Assembly (NCBI RefSeq): GCF_900111765.1 | Contig: NZ_FOIB01000004.1 | Location: forward strand, 62,001 to 126,000 | Source: Myxococcus fulvus | GTDB lineage: Bacteria; Myxococcota; Myxococcia; Myxococcales; Myxococcaceae | DNA length: 64,000 bases | Direction: 5' to 3' | Shown here: in pieces, positions 12,320 through 20,921 of the stretch | Layout of the letters: each line of letters opens with the position of its first letter | Numbering within the stretch: the stretch's first letter is position 1 | Program-made: the position numbers and the translations under genes | Notes under the pieces: model-generated | Database searches by the model: none | What the model was told of the DNA's origin: nothing | What the model saw: only the letters and a program-made list of their open reading frames with translations

Positions 12320-12349
12320 CACCCGAGGTGGGCCTGCTCACTTCGGGTG
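12320..12349. terminator. Hairpin between convergent genes (possible two-way terminator)
   Basis: CACCCGAGGTG at 12320-12330 pairs with CACTTCGGGTG at 12339-12349 at 10 of 11 positions around an 8-base loop. It lies between the stop codons of two convergent genes. There is no T run, as is usual in very GC-rich genomes. Confidence 0.45.
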
Positions 12350-13642
12350 GCCTCCGCCCTCCGGCCAGAAGCCCAGCACCTTCTCCGTCGCACCCAGCGA
12401 GGACCACTCCACCTGTCCGCTGAGCACCCGATGTCCGTGGGAGAGCGTCAGTCGCTTCCACAGCGGCACATCGCCGCGTCGCGAGGTCTCCCAGGCCGAC
12501 CAGCTCACGCCCCCGGTGGCCTCCACCACGCGCGCCAGCACCCCGTCGAGCTCCGAGTCGGGCAGCCAGCGCAGCGAGTCCAACACCCAGTTCACCTCGG
12601 CCTGAATCGCGCTCGGCCGCCCCAGCACCGTGGCGAGCGCCTGGGGGCCCTGGCCATTGGGGACGAAGGACACGCCGCCGGGCCGCAGCACCGCCCAGCC
12701 CGAGCGCCCCTGCCCGTCCTCGCGCAGCGTCGCCGGATAGAGGACCGCGTTCTCCAGCCGCACCCCGGAGCGCGCCAGCCCTCGCAGCGGGGCCTGCGTG
12801 TGCAGCTCGAGCAGCGTGGCGACCAGGTTGGACTCCACCAGGTAGGGCACCGTGACGCCCGGCATCCCATCCACCTTCAAGGAGTACAGCTTGCTCACCT
12901 GGACTCCCCCCTGCGCGATGGACGACAGGGGCACCGACACGGCCTCTCCGAACACCGGGCTCCACATGAGCCGCTCGCTCGTCAGCGTGAGCCAGCCGGA
13001 GCGCAGCAGCATCATCACCATGGGGACGACGAGGAGCGCCATCAACAACCAGCCCCCCACCGGGCGCCCATCCACTGGCAGGAAGTAGATGAGCGCGGAC
13101 ACGCCCAGCAGCGCCAGCGCCAGCGAGGACCAGCGCAGCGGCGTCTGCCGGACGGGCACGGAGCCGGAGCGCTGGGTCTGGAACAACAGCACCTCGCCCT
13201 CCTCGAGCGTCTGGGACACCCGCTGCTTCGCCAGCGTGTCCAGCCGGCGCAGCTCCGTTGCCAGCGCGATGGGGCCGGACACGAACGCGTGCCGGGAGAG
13301 CCGCCGACGCACCAGCGGTGCCAGCCGCTTCGAGCACGCGTCCAGCTCACGCAGCACGCGCATCAGGGGCAGCGACTCGGGCCAGGCCTCGCGCTCGGCG
13401 CGGCGCTTCGCGTGCTCCAGGGCCTCCACGACTCGGGGTTGCTGCTCCAGCCACTCCTCGACGAGCGTGGGCTTCGCGCGCAGCTTGCGCTTCCAGGCGC
13501 GGCTGCGCAGCGCGGACTCCAACACGGAGGTGCGCGCGTGCGCGGACTCCAGCACCTCCGCGCGGCCCTCCAGTTGGAGACGCACGTCCTCGGAGGTGGG
13601 GCCTGCGTGAGGCGCCCTCTTGGCGAGGTCTTGTCGGGACAT
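12338..13642 (-). CDS. Two-helix membrane protein of unknown family, paralogue A
   Basis: A 434-residue protein. The N-terminal 160 residues are charged and helical (likely coiled coil). Two adjacent membrane helices follow at about 172-190 (SSLALALLGVSALIYFL) and 198-214 (WLLMALLVVPMVMMLL). After these comes a cytoplasmic-looking beta-rich domain with the segment LTSERLMWSP and a C-terminal WVLDSLRWLPDSELDGVLARVVEATGG region. The last segment is clearly shared with the upstream paralogue at 14003-15328 (WVLDALRWQPESELDAWLARAI), so the pair arose by duplication. A PH-like or lipid-responsive domain is conceivable but not shown. I know no function. Confidence 0.7.
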   Translation of the reverse strand: MSRQDLAKRAPHAGPTSEDVRLQLEGRAEVLESAHARTSVLESALRSRAWKRKLRAKPTLVEEWLEQQPRVVEALEHAKRRAEREAWPESLPLMRVLRELDACSKRLAPLVRRRLSRHAFVSGPIALATELRRLDTLAKQRVSQTLEEGEVLLFQTQRSGSVPVRQTPLRWSSLALALLGVSALIYFLPVDGRPVGGWLLMALLVVPMVMMLLRSGWLTLTSERLMWSPVFGEAVSVPLSSIAQGGVQVSKLYSLKVDGMPGVTVPYLVESNLVATLLELHTQAPLRGLARSGVRLENAVLYPATLREDGQGRSGWAVLRPGGVSFVPNGQGPQALATVLGRPSAIQAEVNWVLDSLRWLPDSELDGVLARVVEATGGVSWSAWETSRRGDVPLWKRLTLSHGHRVLSGQVEWSSLGATEKVLGFWPEGGGHPK

Positions 13643-14002: not shown

Positions 14003-15328
14003 TTACCCTCCGACACCCCAGCCGTGGAGCAGTTGGAGGACCGTGCCTCGGTCGTCCGAGTCCGGCTTGCCCACCAGGACCTCCTTGCCTCGCGACAGGT
14101 GGACGTCCTGCTCCTCCTCCACGTCGGGAGACACGCGCACGTCCACGGAGGCCCAGATGGCGCCGTTGGACTGCGCGATGGCCCGCGCCAGCCACGCATC
14201 CAGCTCCGACTCGGGCTGCCAGCGAAGCGCATCCAGCACCCACGTCAGCTCGACGCGTGAGTCGAGCCTCCGCCCCGTCGCGACCTTCAGCAGGACCGCT
14301 CCCACGTCCGAGCCCGAGCCCGGGAGGAAGTAGGCGCCCCGGTGCGACAGCACGAGCTGACCCGGCGTCCAGGAGTTGTTGCGACGAAGCTGCGCGGGAT
14401 AGGTCACGAGCACCACGGGCCGCTCGGCGCGCGAGGCGTTGGCACGGACCTGGGGCACGCGGAACAACTCGAGCAGCACGCGCAGCCGCTGCACCTTCTC
14501 GCGACCGAAGCGAGGCAGGTGGAGATACCGGTCACCACGCACCGTCAGCGTGCCCCGAAGCCCCTCTGGCTCGACCGCGCCATCTCCCAGTGAGTCCAAC
14601 CGCACGACCACCGGCGGCTCGCCTCCCGGCGCCAGCCACACCAGCCGCTCCGGCGTCAGCCAGAGGACGCCGGGTGTACGACGTCGCAACAGGCTCGCGG
14701 TGAGGAGGAGCAGCAACCACAGCGCGACCGCGGTGACCACGAGCGCCATCCCCCAATTGAATGAATTGCCCAGTCCCTCGAACAGCCCCATGCCCAGGAA
14801 CAAGCCCAGGACGAACTGCGCTGCGAGCACGTACTGCATCCCTCCTCCCGCCGAGCCGATGCGCAGCGAGAAGGGCTCCCCCGGTGTCCGCGCGAGCGAG
14901 ACATCCTGGAGACACACCTCCTCGAGCTTCACGAGGGCGTCCCGCAGCGGCAGCGACTCGGGGCGGCGGAGCAGCTCATCCAGCCGCTGGTCGACCAGGG
15001 TGGAGACTCGCGCCCGGAGGTCGCGCACGCGCCGCGCCGATGTGGGAATCCGGGCGTCGGCGGGCCAGCCCTCCAGCTCGCATCGGCGCTCCGTGCGCTC
15101 CAGGGCCTCGGTCAGCGAGCCCTCCAGCTCCCTGACCTCACGAAGCAGGCTCGGCGCGGCGCACACCTTGCGTCGCCAGCGACGGGACTCGAGCTGCTCG
15201 GCGAGCAGGCGGTAGCACCGGAGGGCTGACTCGATAAGCTCCACCCGCCCTTCCAGGCGGCGGCGCAGGTCCCCCTCCGACGCCCGTGACTCCGACAGGG
15301 CGGCGGCGGTTTGGGTGCGTTCGGACAT
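14003..15328 (-). CDS. Two-helix membrane protein of unknown family, paralogue B
   Basis: A 441-residue protein with the same plan as paralogue A. It has a charged, helical N-terminal half (heptad-like LEGRVELIESALRCYRLLAEQL), two membrane helices at about 165-190 (AAQFVLGLFLGMGLFEGL) and 198-216 (GMALVVTAVALWLLLLLTA), an LTPERLVWLAPGG motif and a C-terminal WVLDALRWQPESELDAWL region. ATG 15328 (MSERTQ) is preferred; an in-frame ATG 48 bases upstream is also possible. The downstream truncated copy and paralogue A show that the family expanded locally. No enzymatic motif is visible. Function is unknown; a membrane-anchored sensor or scaffold is only a guess. Confidence 0.7.
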   Translation of the reverse strand: MSERTQTAAALSESRASEGDLRRRLEGRVELIESALRCYRLLAEQLESRRWRRKVCAAPSLLREVRELEGSLTEALERTERRCELEGWPADARIPTSARRVRDLRARVSTLVDQRLDELLRRPESLPLRDALVKLEEVCLQDVSLARTPGEPFSLRIGSAGGGMQYVLAAQFVLGLFLGMGLFEGLGNSFNWGMALVVTAVALWLLLLLTASLLRRRTPGVLWLTPERLVWLAPGGEPPVVVRLDSLGDGAVEPEGLRGTLTVRGDRYLHLPRFGREKVQRLRVLLELFRVPQVRANASRAERPVVLVTYPAQLRRNNSWTPGQLVLSHRGAYFLPGSGSDVGAVLLKVATGRRLDSRVELTWVLDALRWQPESELDAWLARAIAQSNGAIWASVDVRVSPDVEEEQDVHLSRGKEVLVGKPDSDDRGTVLQLLHGWGVGG

Positions 15329-15458
15329 TGAGCGCACAGCATAGCCGGCAAGCTGCATGGACCGGGAACGGCGCACGGGTCAGGTGCCTAGCAGGTCTTC
15401 GTCTCTCCGCGCCGCGGCCCGGCGCATGCGACGATTCCCCGGCGACCCACCCAAGAAC

Positions 15459-16022
15459 ATGAGCCCGTCCATCCCACCCGAGGTCCTTGTCGAGGTCGAC
15501 CCGCTCCTGCTCTCCCGTGCGCTCTTCCCGGCCATCTTCCTGCTCCGGAAACGGACGGGCTGTTCGCTCGCCACGGCGGTCGAGCAGCTCACCTGGCGTT
15601 CCCAGGAGTTGGAGACGCTCCATCCCGCGTTCGGAGAGGCGGAGGCGGCGCGTCGGTGGAGGGAGAGCGCTCCCGAGGCGTGGCGAGCGCGGGCCCGTGA
15701 AGCGCTCGACGCGCTCGCGCGTCCTCCCGTGGTCATCGAGGTGCAATGGGATGGCGACTCGTTCGGATGGTCTCTCGATGTCTTCGCCATCCTGCCGGGT
15801 GCATCCGCCGCGCATCCTCGCTTCACCTGCGTCCCGCTGGTGACGATGCGCCCCAGTGGGCCGACGATGGGCGACGCGCGTGCGCTCGCCATCGAGGTGG
15901 GGCAGTGGGCCCAGGAGCGCTGGAGCAGCCTCTTCTACTTCCCTGCGCTCGAAGAGAGCCCGGACGAGCCACGCTGGTGGGACACCCTACCCGCCGAGCC
16001 AGGAGATGACGCGGGTTCGTGA
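15459..16022 (+). CDS. Hypothetical protein
   Basis: About 187 residues from ATG 15459 (MSPSIPPEVLVEV); an earlier in-frame ATG at 15426 is possible. The protein is acidic at the end and rich in tryptophan (EVQWDGDSFGWSLDV, WAQERWSSLFYF, PRWWDTL). No signal peptide or membrane helix is visible. I do not recognise the family. It is divergent from paralogue B (131 bases apart) and converges on the proline-rich protein of the tail-tube module, so a functional link to either side is unproven. Confidence 0.6.
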   Translation: MSPSIPPEVLVEVDPLLLSRALFPAIFLLRKRTGCSLATAVEQLTWRSQELETLHPAFGEAEAARRWRESAPEAWRARAREALDALARPPVVIEVQWDGDSFGWSLDVFAILPGASAAHPRFTCVPLVTMRPSGPTMGDARALAIEVGQWAQERWSSLFYFPALEESPDEPRWWDTLPAEPGDDAGS

Positions 16023-16147
16023 CGGCACGAATCCCCTGGAGCCACGGACCTCCCGGTGCACGCCGGACCCGCGGCGCACGGCTCGCGCATCGAACGCCCA
16101 GCCGATTCGCGCACCCTCAGGTGAGCTGGGACAGGCCCCTCGGGCCA

Positions 16148-17392
16148 TCACTCGCCTCGCTGCTCCCGCTCGAGCCGGCGCATCTGCTCCCACAGGCGCA
16201 GCTCGTGCGCGGCGTCCGCGTCGTCGGTGTCCCGCGACGAGGCGGAGGGCTGCCCCGCTTCTTGCTGGAAGGGATGTGCACCCTGCCTCGGCGCTTCCTG
16301 ACCGCTCTCGCCAGGCCACGTCTCCGTCCTCCCGGGAGTCGTCCGAGGCCCGCTCGCGACGTGCTGCTCGTGATGCACCGGCTCCGCGTGCACGGGCGCG
16401 GCCTCGGCGCCAGACCGGCGCGGAATCCACAGCTCCGCCGTGGAGCGGGCACGAGGCGCGGCCCCGGGGCCCTGGACGCCGGAGGCCTGGGACGCGGAGA
16501 TGCCCTGCGGCAGTCCCGACGAGCTGAGCCCATCATCATCGTCCAGCTCCCCCAGCGGCGGCACGCACACCTCCGAGGGAGACACCGGCGTGGACTCGAC
16601 GCGCACCGGATTGGGGAACGGCGCGCCCCGCAGCATCAGCGGGACGGGCGTCGTGGGTCCTTCCACCGGCAGCGGCGCGGGCTCCGACGGAATGGGCGCG
16701 TGCGGCGGCGATGCGAAGGGATGAGCCCAGGCGCCCTGCGTCCCGGTCCCCCCCGGAGCCGCCACCTCGGCGGAGTCCCGCGTGGGCGAGGCACTCACGG
16801 GCGGCGGAGAAGTCCCTCCCTCACGCCACATCGGCGCGGGGTTCTCCGCCGTGGGGATGGACTCGACCCGACGGGAGAGACGCGGAGGCGAGGGCCGCGT
16901 GCGGATGGAGGGCGACATCGTGGGAGGTGGCAGGGGACGCCGAGGCCCCGGGTCCGTGGCATTGCCCGAGAGCATCATGCGCGCGCGAGCGGACAGATGC
17001 GCATCACTCACGGGCGGCGAGGGCACCTCGTCCGTCATCCCCTCGACCAGGTGGGGCGCGACCTTGCGCACCCGCGCCACCCAGTCCGCCGGAGGTCCCA
17101 TGGCGCGCCGTGCCTGGATGTCCCGCACCCAATGCTCCGGCGGTCCCACGCCCACCGCGGGCGCCGTCACCATCTTGATGGACGCGGGTGGCATCGGAGG
17201 CCCGCGGGGCACGGTGATGGGCGGCCCGCTCGTCGCGGGACACGCGCGCTCCGGAGTCAACCGCGCCTGCGAGAGCGCCGCGGCGAAGTCAGCCTCCTCC
17301 TCGGAGAGCACCGCCCGCGCCCAGTCCTTCACCCGCCGGGCGACGGAGCGCAGCCACCCGCCGGGCACCTGTCCTCGCGCGCGCTCAGCCAC
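16148..17392 (-). CDS. Proline-rich protein downstream of tail-tube gene, unknown function
   Basis: A 414-residue protein from GTG 17392. This start forms an 8-base GTGGCTGA overlap with the tube gene's stop, implying translational coupling; a longer frame would overlap the tube gene by 68 bases. The N-terminus (about 1-45) is a basic helix (GGWLRSVARRVKDWARAVL). A tandem motif follows: PPEHWVRDIQARR and PPADWVARVRKVAP, about 17 residues apart. Residues from about 130 to 390 are low-complexity, Pro/Ser/Ala-rich and probably disordered, ending in a charged helix (ELRLWEQMRRLEREQRGE). Its place in the operon suggests a role with the tail proteins, but no known tail family is recognised. Confidence 0.65.
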   Translation of the reverse strand: MAERARGQVPGGWLRSVARRVKDWARAVLSEEEADFAAALSQARLTPERACPATSGPPITVPRGPPMPPASIKMVTAPAVGVGPPEHWVRDIQARRAMGPPADWVARVRKVAPHLVEGMTDEVPSPPVSDAHLSARARMMLSGNATDPGPRRPLPPPTMSPSIRTRPSPPRLSRRVESIPTAENPAPMWREGGTSPPPVSASPTRDSAEVAAPGGTGTQGAWAHPFASPPHAPIPSEPAPLPVEGPTTPVPLMLRGAPFPNPVRVESTPVSPSEVCVPPLGELDDDDGLSSSGLPQGISASQASGVQGPGAAPRARSTAELWIPRRSGAEAAPVHAEPVHHEQHVASGPRTTPGRTETWPGESGQEAPRQGAHPFQQEAGQPSASSRDTDDADAAHELRLWEQMRRLEREQRGE

Positions 17393-17837
17393 GGGTGATG
17401 GACTCGAAGACGAGGGTGAGTGAGTCGACGGCGATCTGCTGTCCGAGCACATCCAGCGGAGCCGCCCGCCACTTCTTCGGCCAGGCCTCGTTGAGGTCCC
17501 ACCGCAGCTTCTGCGTCATCCCATCGCCCTCCAGCAACAGCACGGAGACGTTCTTGCGCGACGGTCCCCCGTTCATCGACGCGAGGAACCAGTTCCACAG
17601 CTCCGGGGACTGGGTGACGCCGTAGCGCAGCGTCAAATCCCCCTGCATCACGGGCCCCGCGAGCCGCTCGCGGGGATGCGGCGTGATGACCTCCACCTCC
17701 AGGTCGGAGCACTGGGTGAAATGCCCCTCGTTCACCCCGTCGATGAGCAGCTTGAAGTTGTACGCGCGGAACGGGTCCACGCGCGTGCCCACTTCCTGCC
17801 GCGATGGGGCCACCTCGGGCGCCTTGCCGTCAGCCAT
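17385..17837 (-). CDS. Contractile-tail tube protein (T4 gp19 family)
   Basis: A 150-residue protein of the normal length for phage/extracellular contractile injection tube subunits. Typical features are DPFRAYNFKLLIDGVNEGHF near the N-terminus, the FTQCSDLEVEV strand, GDLTLRYGVTQSPELWNWF in the middle, and LNEAWPKKWRAAPLDV with AVDSLTLVFESI at the end. Subunits of this fold stack as hexamers to make the inner tube of contractile tails. It is preceded by a DUF4255-like gene and overlaps the next gene by 8 bases, forming a three-gene unit. No sheath, baseplate, spike or ATPase gene is present within the window. Confidence 0.85.
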   Translation of the reverse strand: MADGKAPEVAPSRQEVGTRVDPFRAYNFKLLIDGVNEGHFTQCSDLEVEVITPHPRERLAGPVMQGDLTLRYGVTQSPELWNWFLASMNGGPSRKNVSVLLLEGDGMTQKLRWDLNEAWPKKWRAAPLDVLGQQIAVDSLTLVFESITRG

Positions 17838-17875
17838 GGGTCACCTCCTCCACTTCGTCGAGGGCGCTCGGCACG

Positions 17876-18367
17876 TCAGTCCTCCTTCAGCGGCAAGCGG
17901 ATGAGCAGCGGTTGGGGCTCGGCGGCCGGCGCCTCCGCGGGCCCTCCTTGGGTGATGACCGGGAAGCGCACGCGGTGCACCACGGCCGCGGGCCGCTCGC
18001 GGCGGACAGGCAGGCGCAGCCGGAAGCCGGGGCGCGGTGGCACGCGCAGCCCTGCCCAGAGCGTGGCGGGCACGGGCGTCAGGTCCACGTCGAACTCCGC
18101 CTCCTCCATCGCGGAGAAGACCAGCTCGCCGAGCAGCCGGTGCGCCTGTTCGGGAGACTCCGCGCCGGCGGTGACCAGGTAGCAGACCGAGAACTGCGGC
18201 GGCCCCCGGCGCCCACCTCGCGCGGGAGGCGCGGGCCCCAGCTCCAGCAGGTACAGACACACCCCGCGCTCGATGGCCTCGCGGTCCGGGACGCCGAGGT
18301 ATACAGGCGCTTCGCCGGCGACGCGGCTCACCCATGCCTTCAAGCGTTGATCGACTTCGTCGATCAT
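17876..18367 (-). CDS. DUF4255/Pvc16-like tail-associated protein
   Basis: A 163-residue protein from ATG 18367. It opens MIDEVDQRLKAWVSRVAG, the usual helical start of the Pvc16/Afp16 N-terminal (DUF4255) family, and has the strand-helix segment FSVCYLVTAGAESPEQAHRLLGELVFSAME. In extracellular contractile injection systems this protein caps or ends the tube-sheath assembly. The next gene, 38 bases downstream, is a tube protein, which supports the assignment. The C-terminal strand region (RLRLPVRRERP, VHRVRFPV) also fits. The name rests on context plus pattern, not on a strong single motif. Confidence 0.7.
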   Translation of the reverse strand: MIDEVDQRLKAWVSRVAGEAPVYLGVPDREAIERGVCLYLLELGPAPPARGGRRGPPQFSVCYLVTAGAESPEQAHRLLGELVFSAMEEAEFDVDLTPVPATLWAGLRVPPRPGFRLRLPVRRERPAAVVHRVRFPVITQGGPAEAPAAEPQPLLIRLPLKED

Positions 18368-18665
18368 CCGGTCCCCCCAGGTCCTGGGCCGGCTTCCACG
18401 GGGCCTGTGCCGTCCGTGATATCCGGACTCGCAAGGTCGCACCGCCTGCGGGGCACCGGAAGTGCTCCCAGGGACAGCGCCGTCGTCGCGAGCCCAACAG
18501 CCCCCCACCGGCGACACCCGCTTCGTCCGGCGGAGCACACGCGCGATGCGCACGAATGAACCCACGACAAGTAGGCCCGGGGCGCACCTTCGACGCTTCG
18601 GCCGCACCAGGTGTCCATGGATGCGCGGGCATCGCGTCCTATCGTGGACCCGCTCGAAAGACTTC

Positions 18666-20921
18666 ATGCCACGCGCCCTCCTGCTGACCCTGCTGCTCGC
18701 CACGCTCGCGAAAGCCGCACCCGCCGATTTCGCGTCCCCCGCGTCCGAATCCCCCCAGGCGCTCGCGAAGGCGATGCCCGTGCTCGCGAGGGCCCTGCTG
18801 AAGGACCCTCCCGACGAGGACCTGGCCACCCGGCTGGGCCAGCGCTTCCGGCTCCAGTTGGTGTCAGGTGACTTCCTGGGTGCGGTCGCGTCCCTCCGCG
18901 AGCTCCGGCCGCTGTTGGAAGTGAACAGCGCGACGAAGGGCATCACCTTCCTGCAGTACGAGGCCCACGCGCTGGCGAAGCAGGCCCAGGCCGAGCGCGG
19001 GACGCCGTACGCCGAGGCGCTGCGCGGGGCGTTCGAGCGGACCTTCGGCGCGCTGGAGGACCCGGTCGCGCTCGATGCGCGGGGGATGTTCCGCTTCGAC
19101 CTGGAGCGGGCGCGACGGGAGCTGGACACCCGACTCGAGGAGGCGCGCGAGGCGGGGCGGCTGACACGAGCCCAGGCGGTGGAGCTGGTGCGTCACTACC
19201 AGGTCCATCAGGTGTTCCAGGAGCTGCTGCCCGCGAGCGAGCCCCTGTGGGCCCAGGACGAGGCGCGCCGTTATGTCATCGAGGAGGACGTCCTGGTGCC
19301 CACGCCCGACGGGGCACGGGTGTCCGTCACCCTCGCGCGACCCCGGAGGACCCAGGCGCCGCTGCCCACGGCGATGTCGTTCACCATCTACGCCAACGCC
19401 TTCAACAAGCAGGAGGCGGTGCGCTCGGCGGCGCATGGCTTCGTGGGGGTGACGGCGCTCACGCGAGGCAAGCGCAACAGTCCCGAGGCGCCGGTGCCCT
19501 TCGAGCATGACGGGGACGACGCCATCGCGGTCATCGACTGGGTGAGCCGCCAGCCCTGGAGCGATGGGCAGGTGGGGATGTTCGGGGGGAGCTACGAGGG
19601 CTTCACGCAGTGGTCCGCGGCGAAGCGAGGGCACCCGGCGCTCAAGGCCATCATGCCGTCGGTGCCGGTGGCGCCGGGCATCGACGTGCCGATGCAGGGC
19701 AACGTCTTCCAGGGCTTCTTCTACCGCTGGCCGCGCTACGTCACGCTCGACAAGGGATTGGCGGACGCGGACTACTTCGACGGGGCGCGCTGGGACGCGC
19801 TCCACGAGCGCTGGTACACGAGCGGCGAGCCCTATCGCGCGCTGGAGCGGCTGGACGGGCGTCCCAACCCCTTCTTCCAGCGCTGGCTCGGGCACCCGAC
19901 GTACGACGCGTACTGGCGGAAGATGATTCCATACCGTCAGGAGTTCGCGCGCATCCGCATCCCCGTGCTCACCACGACGGGCTACTACGACGGCTGTTCG
20001 TTGAGCGCGATGTACTACCTCACCGAGCACCTGAAGCACGCGCCGGACGCTCGCCACTACTTCGTCATCGGGCCGTACGACCACATGGGCGGGCAGCACG
20101 CGTCGAGCGATGAGCTGATGGGCTATCGCATCGACCCCGTGGCCCGGCTGGATGTGCACGCGCTGCGCTACCAGTGGCTGGAGCACGTGCTGAGACAAGG
20201 TCCGCTGCCCGCGTTGCTGAAGGACCGCGTCAACTACCAGGTGATGGGGGCGAACACGTGGAAGCACGCGCCGGACCTGGCGGGTGTGAGCAACGGCGCG
20301 GTGGAGTTGTTCCTCGCGCCGTCGGCCACGGGGACGCTGCACCGGCTGACGACCGCGGCGCCCGCTGCGAGCACCCGGCAGCGGCTGCGTGTGGACTTCA
20401 AGGACCGCTCGCCGGGACCGCACTACGAGCCCTCGGACATCGTGTCCAAGACGCTCGAGGCGCCGCGCGATGGCGTCGTCTACGTCGGCGAGCCGCTCAC
20501 GCAAGCCCTGGAGGTGAGCGGGCTGTTCTCCGGGCGGCTCGACTTCGTCACGAACAAGAAGGACTTCGACTTCTACGTGGTGCTCTACGAGCGCACGGCG
20601 AAGGGGGAGTACGTGTACCTGTCCTACGTGCTCCAGCGCGCCAGCCACGTGGAGGAGCGCGAGAAGCGGCGGCTGCTCGTTCCGGGCAAGCGTCAGCGCC
20701 TGACGTTCCAGAGCGGACGGATGACCAGTCGCAGGCTCGAGGTGGGGAGCCAGGTGGTCGCGGTGGTCGCCATCAACAAGCACGCGCAATCCCAGCTCAA
20801 CCTGGGCACGGGCAAGGACGTCAGCGACGAGCGCCTCGCGGACGCGAAGACGCCCCTCGACATCACCTTTCTCCCTGGGAGCCGGCTCACCCTGCCCGTG
20901 TGGAGGCAGCCCGCGCCCTGA
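18666..20921 (+). CDS. Secreted CocE/NonD-type hydrolase (X-Pro dipeptidyl peptidase S15-like)
   Basis: A 751-residue protein starting with a short signal peptide (MPRALLLTLLLATLAKAAP). A helical region of about 170 residues precedes the catalytic domain. The nucleophile lies in MFGGSYEGFTQW (GxSYxG); FVIGPYDHMGG holds the probable catalytic His and TTTGYYDG is nearby. The C-terminal 200 residues form the jelly-roll domain typical of the family, around YVGEPLTQALEVSGLFSGRL. Relatives are cocaine esterase, glutaryl-7-ACA acylase and X-Pro dipeptidyl peptidases, so it cleaves an ester or amide that cannot be specified here. It converges on the kinase-TPR gene with only 12 bases between stops. 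Confidence 0.85.
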   Translation: MPRALLLTLLLATLAKAAPADFASPASESPQALAKAMPVLARALLKDPPDEDLATRLGQRFRLQLVSGDFLGAVASLRELRPLLEVNSATKGITFLQYEAHALAKQAQAERGTPYAEALRGAFERTFGALEDPVALDARGMFRFDLERARRELDTRLEEAREAGRLTRAQAVELVRHYQVHQVFQELLPASEPLWAQDEARRYVIEEDVLVPTPDGARVSVTLARPRRTQAPLPTAMSFTIYANAFNKQEAVRSAAHGFVGVTALTRGKRNSPEAPVPFEHDGDDAIAVIDWVSRQPWSDGQVGMFGGSYEGFTQWSAAKRGHPALKAIMPSVPVAPGIDVPMQGNVFQGFFYRWPRYVTLDKGLADADYFDGARWDALHERWYTSGEPYRALERLDGRPNPFFQRWLGHPTYDAYWRKMIPYRQEFARIRIPVLTTTGYYDGCSLSAMYYLTEHLKHAPDARHYFVIGPYDHMGGQHASSDELMGYRIDPVARLDVHALRYQWLEHVLRQGPLPALLKDRVNYQVMGANTWKHAPDLAGVSNGAVELFLAPSATGTLHRLTTAAPAASTRQRLRVDFKDRSPGPHYEPSDIVSKTLEAPRDGVVYVGEPLTQALEVSGLFSGRLDFVTNKKDFDFYVVLYERTAKGEYVYLSYVLQRASHVEEREKRRLLVPGKRQRLTFQSGRMTSRRLEVGSQVVAVVAINKHAQSQLNLGTGKDVSDERLADAKTPLDITFLPGSRLTLPVWRQPAP

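What the first reader, a model, noticed from the sequence alone, without database searches (positions are those of the whole stretch)
16148..18367. Orphan three-gene tail-tube module without sheath or baseplate
A DUF4255/Pvc16-like protein, a gp19-type tube protein and a long Pro-rich protein form a compact coupled unit. Extracellular contractile systems and tailocins normally need sheath, baseplate, spike and ATPase genes; none is within the window. The third protein, with two PP-x-W-V repeats and a disordered body, has no known tail family. The module may be a reduced system, a remnant, or a unit whose partners lie elsewhere.
Basis: partly seen in the sequence, partly recalled or inferred. 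Interest (0 to 1): 0.6.

Follow-up and report, generated by a model that had tools for sequence, protein, structure and literature searches.

The report
Leftover of a dismantled injection machine
Three neighbouring bacterial genes are what is left of a larger phage-tail-like injection machine that close relatives still carry; the tube gene seems to be decaying, but the cap gene is still kept by selection, which hints that it has a job of its own.

Summary
In detail: window 16148-18367 (- strand) encodes a Pvc16/DUF4255-type cap, a gp19 tube protein and a Pro-rich disordered protein, without sheath, baseplate or spike genes in the window. It is not an orphan module. At the same chromosomal place 10 of 27 species of the genus carry a larger contractile-injection-system (CIS) operon (cap, sheath, tube, Pro-rich, CIS_tube/LysM, spike, PAAR, gp25, baseplate J, Tail_P2_I and two more). 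In the window the sheath is a 14-codon in-frame stub, all genes after the Pro-rich one are gone, the cap lost its C-terminal domain in frame, and the tube lost the [YF]REGG...RRL[PA]G segment. Sister genome G004 has the same sheath scar and has lost the tube too. Tubes of reduced loci have faster protein change (branch dN/dS 0.49-0.99 against 0.07-0.19 towards the complete relative G003; weakest for the window's own tube), but the cap does not (0.13-0.24). The cap is present in 27 of 27 species and constrained (0.11) in nine that show no sheath or tube at the locus. Best reading: eroding CIS remnant, no injector, with a cap retained for another, unknown purpose. The remnant is ordinary; the retained cap is the interesting part.

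The parts
17876..18367 (-). Pvc16/DUF4255-type cap (tail terminator), 163 aa; C-terminal carboxypeptidase-regulatory-like domain missing (223-233 aa in the other 26 genomes of the genus)
17934..17936 (-). approximate point of the 192-nt in-frame deletion that removed the C-terminal domain of the cap
17830..17874 (-). 14-codon in-frame stub of the deleted sheath gene (VPSALDEVEEVTHG*), ending in the 8-nt overlap ATGGCTGA with the tube start; same scar in the sister genome G004
17385..17837 (-). gp19-type tube protein, 150 aa, lacking the [YF]REGG...RRL[PA]G segment (24 nt) and 4 N-terminal codons (12 nt) relative to G003
17385..17396 (.). 12-nt direct repeat TCAGCCACGGGT at the tube/Pro-rich junction
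   Evidence: D4
17830..17841 (.). 12-nt direct repeat TCAGCCATGGGT at the sheath-stub/tube junction; in G004 the tube is gone between the two junctions
   Evidence: D4; G004 sequence
16148..17392 (-). Pro-rich disordered-looking protein, 414 aa, three better conserved segments (N-terminal WLRSVARRVKDWARAVLSEEE, central PPEHWVRDIQARRAMGPPADWVARVRKVAPHL, C-terminal ELRLWEQMRRLEREQRGE)
16147..16148 (.). boundary where CIS_tube/LysM, spike, PAAR, gp25, baseplate J, Tail_P2_I and two more genes follow in complete relatives and are absent here

Best explanation
The trio is the eroding remnant of a chromosomal contractile injection system. Shown: relatives at the same locus carry a larger CIS operon; here in-frame deletions removed the sheath, the C-terminal domain of the cap and a conserved segment of the tube, and the whole baseplate end is gone. 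Shown: tubes of reduced loci change faster in protein sequence than those of complete relatives, the cap does not in most comparisons. Inferred: the trio cannot assemble or fire a tail. Inferred: the tube reading frame stays open partly because gene junctions overlap by 8 nt (ATGGCTGA, GTGGCTGA), so that translation passes from gene to gene; G004 shows that removing the tube at these junctions leaves the next gene intact. Inferred: the cap protein is kept for a role outside its own particle, either as a stand-alone oligomeric adaptor or as a terminator acting on another tail in the same cell.
For: Larger operon in 10 of 27 species of the genus and in one genome of another genus (G033) between the same flanks (G025 is cut by a contig end within the spike gene); Pfam identities from one of them. 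Reduced states: cap+sheath+tube+Pro-rich 2 of 27, trio 5 of 27, cap+Pro-rich 1 of 27, cap without sheath or tube 9 of 27 (X363 seen in 8; G015 cut by a contig end). G000 and G004 share the sheath scar. gp19 score 105-112 bits in three tubes from complete loci, 62-80 bits in five from reduced loci. Branch dN/dS of the tube: G000 0.75, G013 0.49, G016 0.99, G010 0.70, against 0.07-0.19 towards G003; the dN difference excludes 0 in 4 of 4. dN to the outgroup G033: 6 of 7 reduced tubes (0.417-0.453) exceed all ten complete ones (0.248-0.356). Cap: branch dN/dS 0.13-0.24 in five genomes, 0.11 among the nine cap-only species, dN to G033 0.226-0.280 in all 27.
Against: All three frames are open and net length changes are multiples of three. 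The window's own tube is not faster than every complete one: dN to G033 0.346, inside their range, and its dN/dS interval is wide (0.32-1.84). In pairwise means the tube dN/dS is 0.39 in the complete G002 group, above the 0.28 of the four-species trio clade. For the cap, dN is raised on the G013 branch (difference interval 0.007 to 0.074), and Corallococcus-type loci give 0.24. Retention of the trio in five species could mean that it does something as a trio.
Confidence: 0.83

Rival explanations
1. The trio is a working reduced system (a sheathless tube or protein-binding ring with its own function) fixed by selection.
For: Trio kept with open frames in 5 of 27 species; tube dN/dS 0.28 among the four species of the G007 clade, below 1 and below the 0.39 of the complete G002 group; the window's own tube lies within the complete range of dN to G033.
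Against: Conserved tube segment lost in all 7 tubes of reduced loci and present in the complete-locus tubes shown; branch dN/dS 0.49-0.99 in four genomes; sister G004 lost the tube outright.
Confidence: 0.1
2. Partners act in trans: sheath and baseplate come from another CIS of the same genome.
For: Other CIS loci at C2:1065106-1085727 and C10:165003-184577; 27 of 27 genomes have at least one Phage_sheath_1C match, in 15 of them necessarily outside this locus.
Against: Those loci carry their own sheath, tube and cap, with 23-42% identity in the blastp pieces of sheath and tube against this family; the tube here lacks a conserved segment. G017 keeps the cap although its single sheath match is weak (E 1.8e-6) and of the kind seen at the C3 locus; this class assignment is my inference.
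Confidence: 0.07
3. The operon was reduced once in the clade of G000, G004, G007-G008-G013-G014 and G010-G016; the complete operon of G003-G012-G025 was regained by recombination. (This concerns the number of losses, not the remnant verdict.)
For: All 7 reduced tubes share a Leu-to-Pro change and a net loss of 7-8 residues at the same place; the tube tree without that segment groups the reduced tubes weakly (53/79), and cap and tube data do not reject G007 clade with G000 (and G004 for the cap) (p-AU 0.23 and 0.31).
Against: Species tree puts G003-G012-G025 next to G000-G004 (94/93); gyrB and gene 29295 weakly reject the alternative (p-AU 0.048, 0.022), while the other three flank genes do not decide (0.35-0.50); the cap data reject one clade of all eight reduced genomes (p-AU 0.036); the cap tree shows no tie of the three to the other complete group. 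The tube loss is split into several small gaps in the G007 clade, G010 and G016 but is 24 nt in one piece in G000.
Confidence: 0.3

Closest known systems
Complete CIS operon of relatives in the same genus (e.g. locus L044)
   Same: Same locus and gene order for cap, tube and Pro-rich protein; within the genus 56-75% identity of the tube and 77-86% of the cap over the part compared
   Different: Has sheath, CIS_tube/LysM, spike hub, PAAR, gp25, baseplate J, Tail_P2_I and two more genes
eCIS caps: Pvc16, Afp16, Alg16A, Cis16A
   Same: Cap fold by Foldseek; [quoted passage not shown]
   Different: Those caps sit on assembled particles; here there is no sheath or baseplate in the operon
gp19/Hcp tube proteins (Afp1, Pvc1, Streptomyces CIS tubes)
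   Same: Sequence and fold match (TM-scores 0.41-0.50 by query length in the first 21 rows)
   Different: Lacks a segment that the three solved tubes shown align through (YREGG...LP in the best one); model confidence under 50 at residues 54-61

Membership tests
eCIS / contractile injection system | sheath gene in the cluster | tested here: not met
   14-codon stub only; present in 12 of 27 species at this locus
eCIS / contractile injection system | baseplate (gp25, baseplate J) and spike genes | tested here: not met
   for the window; present in relatives
eCIS / contractile injection system | Pvc16_N tail terminator and tube | tested here: met
   (cap by fold; below the Pfam cut-off by sequence)
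eCIS / contractile injection system | AAA+ ATPase in the cluster (criterion from PMC10020575, passages) | tested here: inconclusive
   none among 20 proteins of the complete relative G002 scanned; not every gene of that region was scanned, and of the window's other genes only three neighbours were
Phage_T4_gp19 tube family (PF06841) | score above the curated cut-off | tested here: met
   80.4 bits against 28.2
Phage_T4_gp19 tube family (PF06841) | ability to form stacked hexameric rings | not testable with these tools
   conserved segment missing
Pvc16_N (PF14065) | score above the curated cut-off | tested here: not met
   14.7 bits against 27; fold match nevertheless
prophage or R-tailocin remnant | phage genes beside it (integrase, capsid, lysis) | not tested
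   no targeted search; flanking genes are shared with relatives

The most novel reading that the evidence does not exclude
Myxococcaceae have domesticated the cap (tail terminator) of a lost contractile injection system: the Pvc16-type protein is kept by purifying selection as a stand-alone cellular protein in every species of the genus examined and in Corallococcus, after sheath and tube were lost in several lineages, so it must do something that needs no particle of its own.
Probability: 0.45. Interest if true: 0.6.

Novelty: new variant of a known kind. Interest (0 to 1): 0.4.

Why it matters
The locus shows, in closely related species, successive stages of taking a CIS apart, and which part is kept. 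It also warns that a DUF4255 or gp19 gene alone is not evidence of a working eCIS.

Tried and rejected
Orphan module: rejected, larger operon at the same locus in relatives. Gain instead of loss: not favoured, because G033 (another genus) and two Archangium loci have the larger operon. Two trees were wrong because gyrB stretches were on mixed strands; one search replaces them. Codon-model dN/dS by IQ-TREE: omega was not obtained from the output, so Nei-Gojobori counts were used. A sigma-70 promoter and intrinsic terminator scan of 15900-18720 found none. Six library searches listed no paper on this locus; five of the six listings were capped below the number found, and no bioRxiv preprints are held. 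PMC10313047 (12 of 14 passages) mentions a CIS in its discussion, of Streptomyces. In the nine-species clade the ORF after the cap is short and variable (106-174 aa), so the Pro-rich protein is not counted as kept there, and those nine were left out of the conservation profile (19 rows used). Rows left out: G012 and G025 are missing from one and two flank-gene sets; G015 is cut by a contig end after the cap, so loss of its downstream genes was not seen directly; of the 26 loci, L153-L156 and L159 (Hyalangium, cap frame 175 aa) are not in the cap alignment. In scripts I trimmed 33 nt of a spurious upstream start from the G012 tube.

Full report
What is there. On the minus strand of window 16148-18367 lie a 163-aa cap protein, a 150-aa tube protein and a 414-aa Pro-rich protein. 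The tube is a clear gp19 protein. The cap is too diverged for the Pfam cut-off (E 0.025) and was not found by a Pvc16_N search of the own genome, but the five best PDB matches of its predicted model (mean pLDDT 76.5) are all caps of contractile injection systems, with modest TM-scores of 0.47-0.56. The Pro-rich protein has no Pfam or NCBIfam family and only an unknown-function match at E 0.022 in PHROGs; three short segments are better conserved among 19 orthologues, the PP-x-W motifs being in the central one (nine genomes of the cap-only clade left out).

What it was. A relative of the tube exists in 17 of 27 genomes of the genus, the window's own included, in one genome of another genus of the family (G033), and more distantly in G056 (61 genomes examined, 19 with a match at E <= 1e-15). 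The surroundings of the 18 other matches were fetched, as were those of the ten genus members without a match. In ten of the 27 the cap is followed by a sheath, the tube, the Pro-rich protein, CIS_tube/LysM, a Phage_GPD/base_V spike hub, a PAAR protein (weak match), gp25, baseplate J, Tail_P2_I and two further genes (Pfam names from G002); in G025 the contig ends within the spike gene. Genes on both sides are shared with the window, so this is the same locus.

How it was taken apart. In the window the sheath is reduced to 14 codons that keep its first and last codons in frame. The cap has lost 192 nt and the tube 12 and 24 nt relative to G003. The tube's lost segment is one that the three solved tubes shown align through. 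Everything after the Pro-rich gene is missing. G004, the sister species in the tree (100/100), has the same sheath scar, a 223-aa cap and no tube; the tube is missing between junctions that in the window carry 12-nt direct repeats (the automatic alignment puts part of the gap further along). Across the 27 species the states are: complete 10, cap+sheath+tube+Pro-rich 2, trio 5, cap+Pro-rich 1, cap without sheath or tube 9. In the last nine no tblastn match to sheath, tube, spike, gp25 or baseplate J was found in the fetched stretch at E <= 0.01; that of G015 is only 5.9 kb and ends soon after the cap. The cap is present in 27 of 27.

How many losses. If only losses are allowed on the tree, the baseplate end was lost at least four times and the sheath at least three times in the genus (my count on that tree; the tool's minimum with gains allowed is three changes each). 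Against this, all seven reduced tubes share one substitution and a net loss of 7-8 residues, and the cap and tube data do not reject a common origin of the G000 and G007 versions. A shared reduction of those with later regain in G003-G012-G025 is open; one clade of all eight reduced genomes is rejected by the cap (p-AU 0.036).

Selection. Since the split from G003, the tube branches of G000, G013, G016 and G010 have dN/dS 0.75, 0.49, 0.99 and 0.70 against 0.07-0.19 on the G003 side; the difference in dN excludes zero in all four. Measured by dN to G033, six of seven reduced tubes exceed all ten complete ones, but the window's own (0.346) lies within the complete range (0.248-0.356), above only its near relatives G003, G012 and G025 (0.27) and two others. 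Pairwise means do not show the contrast everywhere: 0.28 in the four-species trio clade, 1.03 between G010 and G016, 0.39 in the complete G002 group, 0.09 in the complete G003 group. The cap shows 0.14, 0.13, 0.22, 0.24 and 0.13 on the branches of G000, G004, G013, G016 and G010, with dN raised only on the G013 branch; 0.11 among the nine cap-only species; and dN to G033 of 0.226-0.280 in all 27. The sheath of the two species without baseplate genes has 0.56 against 0.11 and 0.19 in complete groups. So structural parts tend to relax once the machine is broken; the cap mostly does not.

Beyond the genus. A search of named genomes with the cap gave 26 loci, some from the same genus. Nine loci, eight named Corallococcus and one Myxococcaceae MAG, have the cap and no sheath or tube in the fetched stretch; Citreicoccus has the cap alone; two Archangium loci and one MAG have the larger type as far as the stretch goes. 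In two of three Corallococcus loci printed (L149, L161) the ORF after the cap holds a segment like the N-terminus of the Pro-rich protein; in L152 the called ORF starts later.

Partners elsewhere. The genome has two other CIS loci with their own sheath, tube and cap (C2, C10), a further sheath match at C3 and a shortened sheath beside a tube at C11. Phage_sheath_1C is matched in 27 of 27 genus members, so action of the cap in trans is not excluded.

Mechanism and verdict. Most likely the trio builds no injector. The 8-nt overlap of tube stop and Pro-rich start, found in 17 of 18 genomes with a tube, suggests translational coupling as a reason why the tube frame stays open; this is inference. 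The cap probably serves another purpose, unknown. As a remnant the finding is ordinary; as a case of a retained tail terminator it is worth a bench test.

Noticed in passing
L044:3346-5441: In the complete relative G002 a Tox-REase-5 protein and an Imm52 immunity protein lie about 2.5 kb upstream of the cap on the same strand, with other genes between; perhaps an antibacterial cargo pair.
   Followed up: partly
L008:16692-17431 (contig C11 of the window's genome): An 81-aa piece of a sheath and a 160-aa tube beside genes that look like an IS66-type element, perhaps a second remnant (the IS naming is from recall).
   Followed up: no
window 12338-13642 and 14003-15376, - strand: Two related proteins with hydrophobic stretches (seen by eye) and no Pfam family above the cut-off; homologues lie past the end of the CIS locus in relatives, just upstream of the cap in two Archangium loci and G033, and after the cap in Corallococcus.
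   Followed up: partly
L142: The record titled 'Comamonas sp. KCTC 72670' carries this locus with Myxococcus-type neighbours and has the contig length of G024:C19; the title looks mislabelled.
   Followed up: no
L160: A MAG titled Thermoflexales bacterium has cap, sheath and tube of this kind, with the tube's conserved segment present.
   Followed up: no
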